From Solirubrobacteraceae bacterium (GTDB lineage: Bacteria; Actinomycetota; Thermoleophilia; Solirubrobacterales; Solirubrobacteraceae): a DNA stretch of 64,000 nucleotides. Made by a program: the position numbers and the translations under genes. Below the pieces are notes generated by a model that ran no database searches, had not been told where the DNA came from, and saw only the letters and a program-made list of their open reading frames with translations. The stretch covers positions 1-64,000 of the forward strand of contig JAPSGI010000011.1 in the NCBI GenBank assembly GCA_031177685.1, given 5' to 3'. Positions 57,396 through 64,000 of this stretch are shown one piece after another (within the stretch, counting starts at the first letter, position 1; every line of letters begins with the position of its first letter).

Positions 57396-58034
57396 CTACG
57401 CGGCCGACTCGGCGGCGATCAGGGCGCGCAGGCCCTCCACGAGCTCCGGCGGGGCCTTCTCGGGGGAGCCGGTGTCGAAGGGCGGTTGGGGGTCGTACTC
57501 GATGCCCAGCTGGATCGCCTGGGCGACCTCGTCGCTGGTCAGCCGCGCGGTCAGCGTCAGCGCCATGTCGATGCCCGAGGACACGCCGGCGGCGGTGATG
57601 ACCTTGCCCTGCTCCACCACGCGGGCGGTGCTGGGCGTGGCGCCGAACTGGCGCAGGGTCTCGCGCTCGGTCCAGTACGTCGTGGCCTGCAGGCCGTCGA
57701 GGATTCCCGCCGCGGCGAGCACCAGCGCCCCGGTGCACACGGACGTCGTGTAGCGCGACGTCTCGTGCGCGGTGCGCAGCCAGTCCAGCGTCGGCTCGTC
57801 CTCCATGACCGCCCGGGTGCCCCAGCCGCCCGGAAAGACGACGACGTCGGGCCGGGGGAGGTCGGACAGGGCGCGGTCGGCGGTGATGGCCAGGGCGCCC
57901 GTCTCGGTCCGGACCGGCCCGGGCTCGGCCGCGAGGAAGTGCACCGTGGCGCCGGGAATCCGGCACAGCACCTCGTAGGGCCCCACGGCGTCCAGGGCCG
58001 TGAACCGGTCGAAGATCGGGATCGCCACGTCCAT
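57396..58034 (-). CDS. DJ-1/PfpI-family protein
   Basis: 212 residues with the DJ-1/PfpI fold: VAIPIFDRFTALDAVGPYEVL at the N-terminus, VFPGGWGTRAVM in the middle, and the nucleophile-elbow cysteine in TSVCTGALVLAAAG (about 98-111). This order resembles isonitrile hydratase and the GATase1-like part of AraC-type regulators. No DNA-binding domain follows. The substrate is unknown. GGAAGGGG precedes the start. Confidence 0.87.
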   Translation of the reverse strand: MDVAIPIFDRFTALDAVGPYEVLCRIPGATVHFLAAEPGPVRTETGALAITADRALSDLPRPDVVVFPGGWGTRAVMEDEPTLDWLRTAHETSRYTTSVCTGALVLAAAGILDGLQATTYWTERETLRQFGATPSTARVVEQGKVITAAGVSSGIDMALTLTARLTSDEVAQAIQLGIEYDPQPPFDTGSPEKAPPELVEGLRALIAAESAA

Positions 58035-58061: not shown

Positions 58062-58183
58062 AACTTGCGTGCCGTTAACCACCGTATACGTGGTCAAGGG
58101 CACGCAAGTTCAGGGGAGCGCCGGGCTGCAGCCAAAACTTGGGCGCCATTGGGCCGCCTATAGCGGCTGAACGGCACGCAAGT
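58062..58183. repeat. 122-base element bounded by 14-bp inverted repeats
   Basis: The left end AACTTGCGTGCCGTT (58062-58076) is the inverse of the right end AACGGCACGCAAGT (58170-58183, 14 bases). Inside, a second inverse copy GGCACGCAAGTT (58099-58110) makes a perfect 12-bp hairpin with the left end, and AACTTGGGCGCC (58137-58148) is a decayed copy. It fills the gap before ftsK and encodes no protein. It resembles a small non-autonomous element or a REP-type palindrome cluster. Confidence 0.6.
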
Positions 58184-58201
58184 CGCGGGAGGGGCGGAGG
58201 C

Positions 58202-60652
58202 GTGCGTGTCGAAGCGTCTTTCGTGGCCACGAAGACCCGCAAGACGACGGCTGTGCGCAAGCGCAAGGCGCCGCCCCGGCGGCGCTTCGGCGCGGGCGTC
58301 TGGCTGCGGCTGCCGGTCCTGGACCAGCGCGAGCTGGACCTGATCGGCCTGGCGCTCGTCGCGGTTGGAGTTTTCCTCGCGTGCGTGATGTACCTCGGGT
58401 GGGCCGGGGGGGAGGTGGGCGGCGCCCTCACCGACGGCGTGCGCTACCTCGTCGGGACCGTCGGCTACGCCGTCCCGGTCGGGCTCGTGGCGGCCGGGGC
58501 GATCGTCGTCATGCGTCCGATGCTGCCGACGGGCCGGCCCTTCGGCACCGGCGCCGCGTGCCTGATGGCCGCAGCCACGCTCGCCTTCGCGGCGGGCACG
58601 CTCGGCCTCGGCCCCGCCGGCGCCAGAACCGACGTGTGGGAGCACAGCTTCGTCGAGGACCGCGGCGGCGTCACGGGCCAGGCCCTCTACACCGCCGTGG
58701 AAAGCGCGGTCTCGCAGCCCGGCACCCACATCCTGACCCTCTTCCTTCTGGTCGCCGCCGTTCTCCTCCTCACGGGCGCCACGGTCGCCGGCGTGATCAA
58801 CGCCACGCGCCGGTCCCTGGAGCGAACCGGCCAGGCCCTGCGCCAGACGACGGGCGGGCGAAACCCAAAGCCCGCGCTGGCGCCCACCCCGCAGCCGGTC
58901 CACCCCCCCGAGCCGCACGCGAGCGAGCTGGTCGTCAAGGCCACGCACGTCGAGGCGCCGCCCATCGACGGCGACGAGCTCTTCGGCGCGGCGCCGCCGC
59001 CCGAGACCGCCGCGGCCGTGCAGATGCCAGTCGAGGAGCTGTCCGAGCCGGTCGAGGAGCCCGACGAGCCCGGGGTGACCAAGGCGACGCCCACGGACGA
59101 GCACGACCTCACACCGCAGGGCCGCTACCGCGCCGCCATCACCGACGACCCGGACTTCGAGTGGACGCTGCCCGACGTGCGGGCGCTCAAGCGCTCCACC
59201 GGCGAGGCAGCCCGGCCGGACACGACCGGGCAGGAGCAGGTGGCGACCCAGCTGGTGGAGACGCTGGGCCATTTCGGCATCCAGGCCAAGGTCATCGGCA
59301 CGGTCACCGGCCCCCACATCTCCCGCTACGAGCTGCGCCTGGCGCCCGGCACGAAGGTCTCCAAGGTCGCCCAGCTGCGCGACGACATCGCCTACGCGCT
59401 GGCCGCGAGCGAGATCCGCATCCTCGCCCCGATCCCCGGCAAGCAGGCGGTCGGCGTCGAGGTTCCCAACCAGCGGCGGCGCATCGTCCACCTCGGCGAC
59501 GTCTTCCAGGACCCGCCCGCCGACTGGTCGCCGCTCACCGTGTGGCTGGGCAAGGACGTGGCCGGCCGCGCGATCGGCGCCGACCTGACCAAGATGCCGC
59601 ACCTGCTCGTGGCGGGCACGACGGGAGCGGGGAAGTCGGGCGCGATCAACGCGATGCTGTCCTCGGTCCTGCTGCGCGCCACGCCGCACGACGTGCGCGT
59701 CGTGCTGGTCGATCCCAAGCAGGTGGAGCTCAACCACTACGACTCGATCCCGCACCTGCTCACCCCGGTGATCACCAGCCCGCGCATGGCCGCCACCGCG
59801 CTGCAGAACCTGGTCCGGGAGATGGAGTCGCGCTACGGGATGATGTCGCTGGCGCGCACCCGTTCGCTGATCGAGCTCAACCGCGCCCGGGCCAAGCGCA
59901 ACGAGCCCGCGCTGCCCTACATCCTGTGCGTGATCGACGAGCTCGCCGACCTGATGATGGTCGCGCCCGCCGACGTGGAGGACTCCGTGATCCGCCTGGC
60001 GCAGAAGGCGCGCGCCGTCGGCATCCACCTCGTGCTGGCGACGCAGAGCCCGCGCGTGGACGTCATCACCGGGATGATCAAGGCCAACGTGCCCTCGCGG
60101 ATCGCCTTCGCGGTCTCCTCGCAGACCGACTCCCGTGTGATCCTCGACCAGAACGGCGCCGAGACGCTGCTGGGGGAGGGGGACATGCTCTTCTCGCCCG
60201 TGGGCTCGTCGCGCCTGCAGCGCATCCAGGGCGCGTACATCGACGAGTCCGAGATCCACAAGCTGACCGAGCACTGGCGCAAGCAGGGCGAGCCGGAGTT
60301 CCACGAGGAGCTGCTGGAGGAGGTCGAGGACGAGGCCGACTCCGGCGGCGCGACCGAGGAGTTCAGCCCCGACGAGGACCCGCTGCTGGAGGAGGCGATC
60401 GGCCTGGTGGCGCAGATGGGGACGGCGTCCACGTCGATGCTCCAGCGCCGCCTGCGGCTCGGCTACACCCGCGCCGGGCGCCTGATCGACATGCTCGAGC
60501 GCCGCGGCGTGATCTCCGGCTACGAGGGCTCCAAGCCGCGCCAGGTGCTGATCGGCGAGGCCGACGTGCCGCGGGTGATCGCGGCGCTGCACGAGCGCGC
60601 CGGCACGGCGCCGGTGGGCGCGCCGGCCGAGCCCGACGAAGCCGACGGCTAG
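58202..60652 (+). CDS. ftsK: DNA translocase FtsK/SpoIIIE
   Basis: 816 residues from GTG 58202, 7 bases after GGGAGGGG. A basic N-terminus leads to four membrane segments (about 40-60, 75-100, 108-135, 178-200), a Pro/Glu-rich linker (about 220-330), the alpha/beta motor with Walker A GTTGAGKSG (about 472-480), Walker B ILCVIDELADLM and the late motif ATQSPRVDVITG, then the DNA-reading gamma winged helix (about 730-790). It pumps chromosome ends through the division septum. The opposite acetyltransferase gene shares its CTAG stop. Confidence 0.95.
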   Translation: MRVEASFVATKTRKTTAVRKRKAPPRRRFGAGVWLRLPVLDQRELDLIGLALVAVGVFLACVMYLGWAGGEVGGALTDGVRYLVGTVGYAVPVGLVAAGAIVVMRPMLPTGRPFGTGAACLMAAATLAFAAGTLGLGPAGARTDVWEHSFVEDRGGVTGQALYTAVESAVSQPGTHILTLFLLVAAVLLLTGATVAGVINATRRSLERTGQALRQTTGGRNPKPALAPTPQPVHPPEPHASELVVKATHVEAPPIDGDELFGAAPPPETAAAVQMPVEELSEPVEEPDEPGVTKATPTDEHDLTPQGRYRAAITDDPDFEWTLPDVRALKRSTGEAARPDTTGQEQVATQLVETLGHFGIQAKVIGTVTGPHISRYELRLAPGTKVSKVAQLRDDIAYALAASEIRILAPIPGKQAVGVEVPNQRRRIVHLGDVFQDPPADWSPLTVWLGKDVAGRAIGADLTKMPHLLVAGTTGAGKSGAINAMLSSVLLRATPHDVRVVLVDPKQVELNHYDSIPHLLTPVITSPRMAATALQNLVREMESRYGMMSLARTRSLIELNRARAKRNEPALPYILCVIDELADLMMVAPADVEDSVIRLAQKARAVGIHLVLATQSPRVDVITGMIKANVPSRIAFAVSSQTDSRVILDQNGAETLLGEGDMLFSPVGSSRLQRIQGAYIDESEIHKLTEHWRKQGEPEFHEELLEEVEDEADSGGATEEFSPDEDPLLEEAIGLVAQMGTASTSMLQRRLRLGYTRAGRLIDMLERRGVISGYEGSKPRQVLIGEADVPRVIAALHERAGTAPVGAPAEPDEADG

Positions 60653-61160: not shown

Positions 61161-62534
61161 GTGACCGGGCCCGGTCCCTACGCCCGCTGGCGGGCCAAGC
61201 GCGTTTGGCTGCGCGATCCCGCGCGGGCGGTCGGGCTGCTCGAACGTGCGGACGGGGACGCGGAGGCGCTGTCGGTGCGCGCCTGGCTCGCCCTGACGTA
61301 CGAGCGCGACGAGGCGGGGGCCGAGCAGGCGGCGCGGGCGGCGCTGGCGCGCGGCGGGGACACGCGCCTGGCCAGCAACGCGCTGGGCGAGGTCCTGCTG
61401 CGACGCGGCGAGGTGGACGAGGCGGTGGCGGTTCTGGAGGCCGAGGCGGCCCGTCACCCGGAGATCCCGTGGTACGAGCTGACGATCGCCGACGCGCTGG
61501 CGGACGCGGGCCGAGCCGACGAGGCCCGGGCGCGTTTGGAGGCCGTGGTGACGCGCGAGCCGCTGCGCCGCCACGCGCTCAAGCGCCTGTCGCGGCTGGC
61601 CCTGGACGGCGGAGACCGCGCGGCGGCGCGCCGCTGGTTCGGCGAGCTGGTGGCGCTGGCGCCCAACTACCTCGTCTACGCGTCCGACTACGCGTCGCTG
61701 GCCGAGCTGCAGCTGGAAGCGGGTGAGGAGGACGGCGCGCGCGAGACGCTGCGCCGGGGCGCGGCCACGTATCCGCGCAACGAGGCGCTGCGCCGCCTGC
61801 GCCGCGAGCGCTTCGGCGAGGAGGAGGCGCTGGCGCGCCCCGCCCTCGCGCCGGTCTCCGAGGATGCGGTGCGCGCACGGCGCATCCCGATCCGCACCCC
61901 GATGATCACCGCGCGCACCGGCCTGCTCGCGGTGGTCGACGAGGCCACGCGCGAGCAGCGGCGCCCCGGCGACGTGGTGGCGATCGGCGAGAGCCCCGCG
62001 GCGGCGGGCCAGGCGCGGCTCGTTCCGCTGGAGCTGATCAGCACCGGCCCGCTGGCGCGGCTGCTGTCGCGCTTCGTCGGCGAGATCGGGCCGCTGCACA
62101 GCCCGGAGGGAATGCAGGGGGCGATCATGGAGTCCGGCCGCGCGCGCGTACTCGCCGGCACGGCGGCGGCGGTCGCGGGGAAGCTGGCGCGCCGGCGCGG
62201 CTGGTTCTACCGGGTGGCGGGGCCGGGCGCGGCGATGATCGACGACGTCGCCGCCGCCATGCCGCCACACGACCACCACATCGTGTTCGGCCCCCGCGCC
62301 CCCCGCGAACTGGCGACCGACCTCTCCCGCGAGCTGGGCTGCGGCGTAGCGATCGTGGACGCCAACCACCTGACCGGCGCCTGGGTCGTCGGGGCCTCGC
62401 CCGGCGTCGACGAGACGTGGGTCAAGGCCGCCCTGATGGACAACCCGGCCGGCAACGAGGACGAGCAGACGCCCGTCGTGCTCCTGCGCCCGCTCAGCGC
62501 AGAACGCGTCGGGCAGCTTCCAGCACGCTCGTGA
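61161..62534 (+). CDS. TPR protein fused to F420-ligase-like domain
   Basis: 457 residues from GTG 61161. Residues 1-225 are TPR-like helical repeats (WLALTYERDEAGAEQAARAAL, NALGEVLLRRGEVDEAVAVL, and so on). From about 240 a second domain begins with PIRTPMITARTGLL and goes on with GDVVAIGESPAAAGQ, LLSRFVGEIGPLHSPEGMQ in part, RRGWFYRVAG and MDNPAGNEDEQTP, the pattern of the F420-0:gamma-glutamyl ligase (CofE-like) superfamily. Whether it ligates glutamate to F420 or to another acid is unknown. It overlaps the opposite aminotransferase gene by 41 bases. Confidence 0.65.
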   Translation: MTGPGPYARWRAKRVWLRDPARAVGLLERADGDAEALSVRAWLALTYERDEAGAEQAARAALARGGDTRLASNALGEVLLRRGEVDEAVAVLEAEAARHPEIPWYELTIADALADAGRADEARARLEAVVTREPLRRHALKRLSRLALDGGDRAAARRWFGELVALAPNYLVYASDYASLAELQLEAGEEDGARETLRRGAATYPRNEALRRLRRERFGEEEALARPALAPVSEDAVRARRIPIRTPMITARTGLLAVVDEATREQRRPGDVVAIGESPAAAGQARLVPLELISTGPLARLLSRFVGEIGPLHSPEGMQGAIMESGRARVLAGTAAAVAGKLARRRGWFYRVAGPGAAMIDDVAAAMPPHDHHIVFGPRAPRELATDLSRELGCGVAIVDANHLTGAWVVGASPGVDETWVKAALMDNPAGNEDEQTPVVLLRPLSAERVGQLPARS

Positions 62535-63618
62535 TCTCGCGCTCGCCCAGCGCCTGGTGGACGGGCAGGGCGAGGAGGCCGGCGCGCAGCGGCTCGAGCT
62601 CGGCAAAGCGCGCGCGGTCCAGCAGGGGGTGGGGGACGGGCCAGACCTCGAGGGGGCGCACGCCGTGCTCGAGCAGGCCGCGGATCGCCGCGGGGCGGTC
62701 GGGGGCCAGGGCGGGGAAGTAGAGCGGCGCGCACCCGTCGGGCAGCGCGCGGTGCGCGGCGGGCGCCAGGTCGCCCAGCTCGGCCAGGAGTCGCGCGTAA
62801 TTGGCGCGGCGCCGGGCGCGGATGCGCTCGGGGTCGGCACGGCGCACGAGCGCCGCGGTCAGGCGAGATGGACGGCCGGCGGCGTTCTCCATGTCGTGCG
62901 GCTCCAGGCCCCACTCGCCGATCACGACCTCCGTCAGGTCGCCCGAGCGGGCGGCGGCGTCGCCTACGGAGGCGTGGCCGATGGCGCGGGTCGCGGCGCG
63001 CCGCAGCGGGGCGGCGCGGGAGATGGCGGCGCGGAACATGGCCAGCGAGGCGGTGGAGCGCAGCATCGCCTTCGCGCGGGGGCGCCGGTCCACGGCCCGC
63101 GGCTCGCCCGCGCGGACCAGCACCGCGCCGCCGTCGGGCAGGCCGAGGGACTTGCGCGGGCAGAACACCGCGGCGTCGCCGCGCGCACCGAGCGGGCGTC
63201 CGTCCGGGTCCAGGGAGAACAGGGCGTGGGCGGCGTCCTCGATGGTCACGATCCTCGCGGGTGCCTCGGGCATGGGGAAGCCGAAGTTCGAGATCAGGTA
63301 GAGCGCGTCGGCCTGCGCGGCGGCGCGGCGCATGTCGTCCTCGTCCACGCGCAGGTCCGCGTCCACGCGGTAGAAGACGACGTCGCACCCGCGCAGGTGC
63401 GCCGCCTCGACCTCAGAGCCGCAGTGGTAGGCCGGCATGGCGACGCGCGAGCCCCGGCCGAGGCCGAGCGCCTCCAGCGCCAGCCAGGCGGCCCCGCGCC
63501 CCAGGTGCGTGAGCCGTACGCCGGGCTGCGACCAGGGAAAGGCGCCGGGGCGCGTGCGGCCGCGCAGCGCCGCCGTCTCCAGCGGGGGGTAGACGCCGAT
63601 CAGGGTGTCGGCGCTCAT
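62494..63618 (-). CDS. DegT/DnrJ/EryC1-type aminotransferase-fold protein
   Basis: 374 residues. A fold-type I PLP enzyme of the sugar-aminotransferase group: GRGAAWLALEALGLGRGSRVAMPAYHC in part, EDAAHALFSLDPDG with the PLP Asp, and K156 in FCPRKSLGLPDGG as the expected Schiff-base lysine. The C-terminal domain (RALPDGCAPLYFPALAP, PVHQALGEREI) is typical. It may make an amino sugar or act in cell-surface synthesis, consistent with a flippase-like gene directly upstream (overlap of four bases). Confidence 0.85.
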   Translation of the reverse strand: MSADTLIGVYPPLETAALRGRTRPGAFPWSQPGVRLTHLGRGAAWLALEALGLGRGSRVAMPAYHCGSEVEAAHLRGCDVVFYRVDADLRVDEDDMRRAAAQADALYLISNFGFPMPEAPARIVTIEDAAHALFSLDPDGRPLGARGDAAVFCPRKSLGLPDGGAVLVRAGEPRAVDRRPRAKAMLRSTASLAMFRAAISRAAPLRRAATRAIGHASVGDAAARSGDLTEVVIGEWGLEPHDMENAAGRPSRLTAALVRRADPERIRARRRANYARLLAELGDLAPAAHRALPDGCAPLYFPALAPDRPAAIRGLLEHGVRPLEVWPVPHPLLDRARFAELEPLRAGLLALPVHQALGEREITSVLEAARRVLR

Positions 63619-64000
63619 CGCGCCAGCAGCCGCGCGGGAACCAGGCGGCGGAACAGCGCGAGGTCCTCCACGCGCAGGCGCCCGGCGACGTAGACGAAGG
63701 TGGCGAGGCCGGCGGCGCCTCCCACGATGAGCTGGACCAGCGAGCGCAGGTCGCCCTCGTCCAGCCCCCACTCGCTGAGCGCCACGACCGCCAGCATCGC
63801 GTCGGCGGCCAGGATCGAGGCCGCGACGACCTTGACCAGCTCGACCAGCGAGCGGCGGGCCTGCAGGTCGCCCACGCGGCGCGTCAGCACCCACGCCAGC
63901 ACGGCCGACCCGACGACGAACCCGAGCGAGTGCGCCAGCGCCAGGCCGCGCACGTCCCACAGGGGGTACAGGGCGAAGTCCAGCGCCACCGTCACTCCCA
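63615..64000 (-). CDS. MurJ/MviN- or Wzx-like flippase, C-terminal part
   Basis: The gene enters from the right edge and ends at 63615; about 128 residues are readable. They contain three or four membrane segments (LALAHSLGFVVGSAVLAWVL, VKVVAASILAADAMLAVVAL, LIVGGAAGLATFVYVAG) and the end RLVPARLLAR. The pattern matches the last helices of MurJ/MviN or Wzx lipid-linked sugar flippases. Its stop overlaps the start of the aminotransferase gene, so the two form an operon, probably for surface sugar export. Confidence 0.65.
   Translation of the reverse strand, partial: GVTVALDFALYPLWDVRGLALAHSLGFVVGSAVLAWVLTRRVGDLQARRSLVELVKVVAASILAADAMLAVVALSEWGLDEGDLRSLVQLIVGGAAGLATFVYVAGRLRVEDLALFRRLVPARLLAR

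What the first reader, a model, noticed from the sequence alone, without database searches (positions are those of the whole stretch)
61161..62534. TPR array fused to an F420 gamma-glutamyl-ligase-like domain
The C-terminal half follows the CofE-like pattern (GDVVAIGES, RRGWFYRVAG, DNPxGxxDEQTP) while the first half is TPR-like. I know of no described fusion of this kind. It may attach glutamate to a protein-bound or surface substrate instead of free F420, and it sits opposite aminotransferase and flippase genes.
Basis: partly seen in the sequence, partly recalled or inferred. Interest (0 to 1): 0.6.

Follow-up and report, generated by a model that had tools for sequence, protein, structure and literature searches.

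The report
TPR-fused CofE-like cell-wall ligase candidate
This is a real two-part protein, a protein-docking repeat array joined to a domain with the fold of the enzyme that adds glutamate to coenzyme F420, but the domain belongs to a separate, unstudied branch that is often found in bacteria without F420 and beside cell-wall genes, so it probably joins an amino compound to a cell-envelope building block.

Summary
The ORF at 61161-62534 (+) is one 457-aa gene: a TPR array (residues ~36-210) followed by a CofE-like domain (~241-446). Full-length orthologues (53-56% identical) exist in two other MAGs, and a further TPR fusion lies in another class; all group together (support 99/96). The predicted structure matches both TPR proteins and CofE (2PHN, 7ULD) in the PDB; the domain alone matches only CofE.

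It is not the F420 ligase. The genome has a separate cofD-cofC-cofE cluster with a canonical CofE (247 bits). The fused domain belongs to a distinct subfamily that lacks ~28 residues after the second conserved Asp, where CofE touches F420. Fourteen of 27 genomes with the subfamily have neither CofD nor canonical CofE.

Neighbours point to the cell envelope: MurJ in five families (two separate clades), a MurT-GatD chain, fusion or operon with mDAP-type AsnB, and PLP enzymes. Best explanation: a nucleotide-dependent amide ligase acting on a cell-envelope precursor, possibly lipid II, with TPRs for docking. The ligase chemistry is inferred from fold, the substrate from context only. MurJ pairs are tail-to-tail, not operons, and some lineages have unrelated neighbours. 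New variant of a known kind.

The parts
61161..62534 (+). TPR + CofE-like fusion gene, 457 aa, GTG start
   Evidence: ORF and translation; orthologues of the same architecture in L003 and L004
61266..61790 (+). TPR array, residues about 36-210, about six repeats of paired helices
   Evidence: Pfam TPR_19/14/16/6 over cut-off; 13 helices in the AF2 model; Foldseek top hit consensus TPR 8chy
61881..62498 (+). CofE-like domain, residues 241-446
   Evidence: PF01996 19.8 bits alone, orthologues over cut-off, hhalign 98.5%, Foldseek CofE E 2e-9
62241..62243 (+). Asp361, invariant in the subfamily; probable counterpart of the Asp in CofE's AGxDxSN motif (placement uncertain)
   Evidence: alignments A3, A6; hhalign
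62358..62360 (+). Asp400 (IVDAN), invariant in the subfamily; aligns with the Asp of CofE's D[ST]xGR motif (D150 of A. fulgidus CofE)
62361..62474 (+). Shortened stretch between Asp400 and TPVV (37 residues here, 62-64 in canonical CofE), ending in the subfamily signature DNPAGNEDEQTP
   Evidence: spacing in 24 subfamily and 12 canonical sequences, hhalign global alignment with a 28-residue gap
62494..63618 (-). DegT/DnrJ/EryC1-type PLP aminotransferase, 374 aa, tail-to-tail overlap with the fusion gene
   Evidence: PF01041 36.9 bits; in family f1 found only in 3 of 61 genomes, including both with the fusion
63615..64000 (-). C-terminal part of a MurJ-type lipid flippase gene (continues to position 65258 of the contig)
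   Evidence: PF03023 298 bits, TIGR01695 297 bits over cut-off; one of two MurJ genes in the genome

Best explanation
The C-terminal half is a nucleotide-dependent carboxylate-amine (amide) ligase of the CofE fold, from a subfamily that has lost the F420-contacting segment, and it modifies a cell-envelope precursor in the cytoplasm, most likely a lipid-linked one such as lipid II, before export by the neighbouring MurJ. Proposed steps: (1) the substrate's carboxylate is phosphorylated by a nucleotide bound with divalent metal (inferred from CofE); (2) an amine attacks the acyl phosphate to form an amide (inferred from CofE); (3) the amine may come from the neighbouring PLP enzyme, here a DegT-type aminotransferase, elsewhere a class-III aminotransferase or an Orn/Lys/Arg decarboxylase (inference from context); (4) the TPR array docks the enzyme on a partner protein (inference); (5) MurJ flips the product (inference). 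Shown here: fusion, fold, loss of the F420-contact segment, presence in genomes without F420, and the recurrent neighbours.
For: Fold: CofE only, E 2e-9; TPR and CofE both found with the full-length model. Two Asp invariant across 25 diverged members, one aligned with CofE D150. Not F420: canonical CofE elsewhere in the genome beside cofD and cofC; 14 of 27 carrier genomes have no CofD match above 40 bits and no canonical CofE, including the second TPR-fusion genome G497; 28-residue loss after D150 in every member, where published structures place F420 contacts (G153-C155; PMC10861534). Envelope: MurJ next to or one to two genes from the gene in families f1, f36, f44, f50, f13, in two separated clades of the tree; single-chain MurT-GatD directly upstream in G516 and G821; C-terminal fusion to AsnB in f6, f22, f75 and an asnB operon next to divIVA, sepF, ftsZ in f9; these AsnB proteins lack the Asp-site residues of E. 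coli AsnB and carry the extra loop, the two marks reported for mDAP-amidating AsnB (PMC8554201). Precedent for other substrates in the CofE family: Chlamydia CT611 replaces FolC (PMC1971073); a CofE homologue, QimC, lies in a teichoic-acid-like wall operon with a flippase (PMC13059722). CofE's mechanism is likened to that of MurD, a peptidoglycan ligase (PMC10861534).
Against: MurJ pairs are tail-to-tail, so not co-transcribed. In G399, same genus, RodZ-type gene, MurJ and DegT are present but the next gene is a GNAT and not the fusion (genome 72% complete). Some lineages have neighbours without wall function: SUF genes in most f45, primary sigma factor in f66. Canonical motif residues SKAE, SN of AGxDxSN and T of DTxGR are changed, so nucleotide and metal binding are not assured. 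AsnB of this type is not always a wall enzyme. No substrate, amine or nucleotide has been shown.
Confidence: 0.45

Rival explanations
1. Envelope ligase, but not for peptidoglycan: it attaches an amino acid or amine to an amino-sugar-containing capsule, teichoic-acid-like polymer or glycolipid whose sugar is made by the DegT aminotransferase and flipped by the MurJ paralogue.
For: DegT-family enzymes are mostly sugar aminotransferases (Pfam/NCBIfam matches are to WecE/PseC/ArnB-type enzymes); the genome has two MurJ genes, so this one may serve another polymer; a PAP2 phosphatase lies between in L004; QimC precedent.
Against: DegT is confined to the f1 clade; other lineages are tied to MurT-GatD and AsnB, which act on peptidoglycan. 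No glycosyltransferase cluster around the gene in the window.
Confidence: 0.25
2. A second F420 gamma-glutamyl ligase that lengthens the F420 tail.
For: CofE fold; the organism has the F420 pathway.
Against: Canonical CofE present elsewhere; F420-contacting segment lost; 14 of 27 carriers lack the F420 pathway, one of them with the same TPR fusion.
Confidence: 0.04
3. A gamma-glutamyl ligase for folate or another small metabolite, like chlamydial CT611 or the TIGR04132 family.
For: CofE family members can replace FolC (PMC1971073); weak TIGR04132 matches of standalone members.
Against: No folate genes adjacent in any lineage examined; TIGR04132 matches are far below cut-off (20.8 of 350 bits). 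Presence of FolC in these genomes was not tested.
Confidence: 0.1
4. A catalytically dead CofE-like domain used as a dimerising or substrate-sensing module, the TPR fusion being a scaffold.
For: Several CofE motif residues lost; the fusion partners (AsnB, TPR) differ between lineages, as for accessory domains.
Against: The subfamily is conserved in its own right, with 16 invariant columns over 25 diverged sequences, among them two Asp and the NPxG..TP signature; standalone copies exist.
Confidence: 0.12
5. Annotation artefact: two genes read as one, or a chance ORF in GC-rich DNA.
For: GC-rich window with many long spurious ORFs; single-sequence PF01996 score is under cut-off.
Against: Same architecture in four genomes, codon periodicity in both halves, structure model with both folds.
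Confidence: 0.01

Closest known systems
Coenzyme F420-0:gamma-glutamyl ligase CofE / FbiB N-terminal domain (PF01996, TIGR01916; PDB 2PHN, 7ULD)
   Same: Fold, N-terminal GDDL...GD(I/V)(L/V) element, second conserved Asp, C-terminal strand element
   Different: About 28 residues shorter after the second Asp, AGxDxSN and D[ST]xGR motifs replaced by AG..xxID[GD] and IVDAN, subfamily signature NPxGxxxxxTP, not tied to F420 genes, fused to TPR or AsnB
Chlamydia CT611, CofE homologue with FolC activity (PMC1971073); TIGR04132 putative folate gamma-glutamate ligase
   Same: CofE-family protein working on a substrate other than F420
   Different: Different subfamily by score (TIGR04132 20.8 bits of a 350-bit cut-off); no folate gene context here
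QimC of the qim wall-modification operon (PMC13059722)
   Same: CofE homologue in a cell-wall locus with a flippase
   Different: Its enzyme function is unknown; reported to superpose on 2PHN at 0.97 A, so it may be of the canonical type; not compared by sequence here
MurT-GatD and AsnB/LtsA peptidoglycan amidotransferases (PMC3267633, PMC8554201)
   Same: Amide formation on carboxylates of peptidoglycan precursors; the CofE-like domain is adjacent to or fused with them
   Different: Unrelated folds; they use glutamine-derived ammonia
TPR proteins (consensus TPR 8chy, PilW/PilF, OGT)
   Same: N-terminal half has the TPR fold
   Different: Generic docking module; OGT is the best known TPR-enzyme fusion, with another catalytic domain

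Membership tests
CofE, coenzyme F420-0:L-glutamate ligase | CofE fold | tested here: met
   Foldseek, domain model: 2phn/7uld/2g9i only, E 2e-9 to 5e-8, prob 1.00
CofE, coenzyme F420-0:L-glutamate ligase | NCBIfam equivalog score (TIGR01916, 180.65 bits) | tested here: not met
   Window protein: no match listed; orthologues 16.4 and 19.4 bits; canonical CofE of the same genome 297 bits
CofE, coenzyme F420-0:L-glutamate ligase | AGxDxSN and D[ST]xGR active-site motifs | tested here: not met
   Replaced by AGPGAAMIDD and IVDANH; the Asp of the second motif is kept, that of the first probably
CofE, coenzyme F420-0:L-glutamate ligase | F420-contacting segment after D150 | tested here: not met
   35-38 residues against 62-64 in canonical proteins
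CofE, coenzyme F420-0:L-glutamate ligase | Occurs with F420 biosynthesis genes | tested here: not met
   As a subfamily: 14 of 27 carriers lack CofD and canonical CofE. G000 itself has the pathway with its own CofE
CofE, coenzyme F420-0:L-glutamate ligase | GTP-dependent glutamate ligation to F420-0 | not testable with these tools
   Needs biochemistry
PF01996 F420_ligase (superfamily level) | Gathering score 25 bits | tested here: inconclusive
   Window 16.3/19.8 bits; orthologues 28.3 and 34.5, most subfamily members 25-54 bits
TPR repeat proteins | Tandem helix-turn-helix repeats over Pfam cut-off | tested here: met
Peptidoglycan-precursor modifying enzymes | Genomic link to lipid II machinery | tested here: met
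   MurJ, MurT-GatD, AsnB neighbours or fusions; not in every lineage
Peptidoglycan-precursor modifying enzymes | Activity on UDP-MurNAc-peptide or lipid II | not testable with these tools
   Needs biochemistry or muropeptide analysis
TIGR04132 putative folate gamma-glutamate ligase | Equivalog score 350 bits | tested here: not met
   No match for the window protein; 20.8 bits at best among relatives

The most novel reading that the evidence does not exclude
A CofE-fold family of peptidoglycan- or lipid-linked-precursor amide ligases, not previously described, widespread in Actinomycetota, occurring alone, fused to AsnB-type amidotransferases or fused to TPR arrays, adding an amino acid, amino sugar or polyamine to a wall precursor before MurJ exports it.
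Probability: 0.35. Interest if true: 0.8.

Novelty: new variant of a known kind. Interest (0 to 1): 0.6.

Why it matters
Proteins of this kind are called 'F420-0:gamma-glutamyl ligase' by family models although they occur in genomes with no F420 pathway, so they mislead F420 surveys. If the envelope reading is right, they are a third class of amide-forming enzyme for wall precursors besides Mur ligases and glutamine amidotransferases, and the standalone and AsnB-operon forms give directly testable enzymes. The result also gives a context in which the reported wall-operon CofE homologue QimC would make sense.

Tried and rejected
Rejected: mis-joined genes (orthologues); F420 ligase; hit in G011 (31% identity, opposite ftsH) as a chance match on the reverse strand; mobile-element carriage: no match in plasmids and none confirmed in viral contigs. 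Led nowhere: PDB sequence search with the single protein found only TPR/PPR chains and with the three-row profile nothing useful; literature searches for a CofE-TPR fusion or a CofE-MurJ link returned nothing. I first took the DegT gene as a strict partner of the fusion; the same-genus genome G399 has MurJ-DegT without the fusion beside it, so I no longer claim a fixed cassette. The AsnB partner as a plain asparagine synthetase was considered less likely after the alignment with E. coli AsnB, although NCBIfam names it asparagine synthase. Metal and GTP ligand numbers for CofE beyond D150, G153-C155, F92 and R234 rest on memory and were not used as evidence.

Full report
Observation. The first half is a TPR array by four Pfam TPR models over cut-off. 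The second half is a remote CofE relative: PF01996 scores 16.3 bits in the full protein and 19.8 bits for the domain alone, under the 25-bit gathering score.

Is the fusion real? Two other assemblies encode the same full-length architecture at 53-56% identity: L003 (QEUQ01000004.1, labelled 'Acidobacteria bacterium ATN3') and L004 (CANJIV010000003.1, a Solirubrobacterales MAG, the same locus as G021). Both orthologues pass the PF01996 cut-off (28.3 and 34.5 bits). A further TPR + CofE-like protein occurs in G497, another class of the phylum (L090; 36 bits for PF01996, TPR_2 1.5e-6), and the TPR-fused proteins form one clade (99/96), with the caution that the G497 branch is long. A predicted full-length structure (mean pLDDT 83.5) retrieves consensus TPR proteins and CofE crystal structures in one Foldseek search. 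The domain modelled alone (pLDDT 89.4, pTM 0.86) retrieves only the five CofE chains below E = 1e-3 (E 2e-9 to 5e-8).

A separate subfamily. A search of 399 genomes of the class and 396 of the phylum found related domains in many Actinomycetota. Their PF01996 scores form a group of their own: in 27 genomes examined, canonical CofE scores at least 166 bits and the CofE-like proteins at most 54. The subfamily has its own signature (two invariant Asp, GxFY..AG, NPxG...TP) and is uniformly about 28 residues shorter than CofE between the Asp corresponding to A. fulgidus D150 and the last strand: 35-38 residues in 24 members against 62-64 in 12 canonical proteins. In CofE the residues just after D150 (G153-C155) and a long domain-swapped hairpin contact F420 (PMC10861534); that the missing piece is this hairpin is an inference from the alignment.

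Not an F420 enzyme. The window's genome has a complete-looking cofD-cofC-cofE region with its own CofE on another contig. Fourteen of 27 genomes that carry the subfamily have no CofD (best match 39 bits or none, curated cut-off 257) and no canonical CofE. They include G497 with the second TPR fusion.

Architectures and neighbours. Standalone proteins of about 215-290 aa; C-terminal fusions to AsnB in families f6, f22 and f75; an asnB operon with a standalone copy in f9, close to divIVA, sepF and ftsZ (sepF and ftsZ named by eye). These AsnB proteins lack the E. coli AsnB residues of the aspartate site around TTIRAST and have a long extra loop, the marks given for mDAP-amidating AsnB (PMC8554201). 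In G516 and G821 a single-chain MurT-GatD protein lies directly upstream. MurJ lies beside the gene, or beyond one or two genes, in f1 (window, G021 and L003), f36, f44, f50 and f13. With about two MurJ genes in about 3200, a chance of 0.25% for lying within two genes gives roughly 4e-10 for five of 16 families, or 2e-4 if only two independent events among eight clades are counted (an approximate calculation with assumed counts). In the clade that contains the TPR fusions the gene is next to a PLP enzyme in each of three lineages: DegT type in f1 and L003, class-III aminotransferase in f14/f28, Orn/Lys/Arg decarboxylase in f78.

The window itself. Order: FtsK (+, 58139-60652), GNAT (-), the fusion (+), DegT aminotransferase (-, tail-to-tail overlap), MurJ (-, runs past the window end), then a RodZ-like HTH_25 protein, CinA and RecA (CinA and RecA named by eye). 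In 61 genomes of the family, the DegT gene occurs in three, among them the two with the fusion. The third, G399 of the same genus, has MurJ-DegT followed by a GNAT and no fusion there, so the three genes are associated but not inseparable.

Mechanism. CofE phosphorylates a carboxylate with GTP and lets an amine attack, a scheme the authors compare with MurD (PMC10861534). Members of the CofE family have changed substrate before: chlamydial CT611 replaces FolC (PMC1971073), and a CofE homologue of unknown role lies in a teichoic-acid-like wall operon with a flippase (PMC13059722). I therefore propose an amide ligase acting on a cytoplasmic, probably lipid-linked envelope precursor, with the TPR array for docking. 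That it is a CofE-fold protein and not the F420 ligase I hold at about 0.9; that it is a carboxylate-amine ligase at about 0.75; that the substrate is an envelope precursor of the lipid II kind at about 0.45.

Weak points. MurJ pairs are tail-to-tail. Several lineages have neighbours without wall function (SUF genes in f45, the primary sigma factor in f66). CofE residues in the SKAE and SN/DT positions are replaced, so catalysis, nucleotide and metal use are unproven. The tree is of one domain with modest deep support. Genomes searched are Actinomycetota only.

Noticed in passing
L093 6323-8548 and L127 6520-8796: Single-chain MurT-GatD fusion (Mur_ligase_M + MurT_C + GATase_3) directly upstream of the CofE-like gene in two of about 50 genomes of one genus; relatives G623 and G820 keep only a C-terminal remnant of the CofE-like gene.
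   Followed up: partly
L044, L045, L042, L046, L083, L084: AsnB-type amidotransferases fused to, or in an operon with, the CofE-like domain lack the E. coli AsnB aspartate-site motif and have the extra loop of mDAP-amidating AsnB.
   Followed up: partly
L085 9221-9224, L087 9615-9618: In family f66 the CofE-like gene overlaps by four bases the stop of a primary sigma-70 factor gene, with alanine racemase nearby; the reason is unclear.
   Followed up: no
L003 (QEUQ01000004.1): A record labelled Acidobacteria carries the full DegT-MurJ-TPR/CofE-like arrangement otherwise seen in Solirubrobacterales; either the label is wrong or the locus was transferred.
   Followed up: no
window 57396-58034 (-): DJ-1/PfpI family protein (92 bits) between a response regulator/histidine kinase pair and FtsK.
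   Followed up: no
G000 contig C24:55516-56817 (L130): Second MurJ gene in the genome, beside rpsT (named by eye), only 29% identical to the MurJ next to the window fusion; which one exports lipid II is open.
   Followed up: partly
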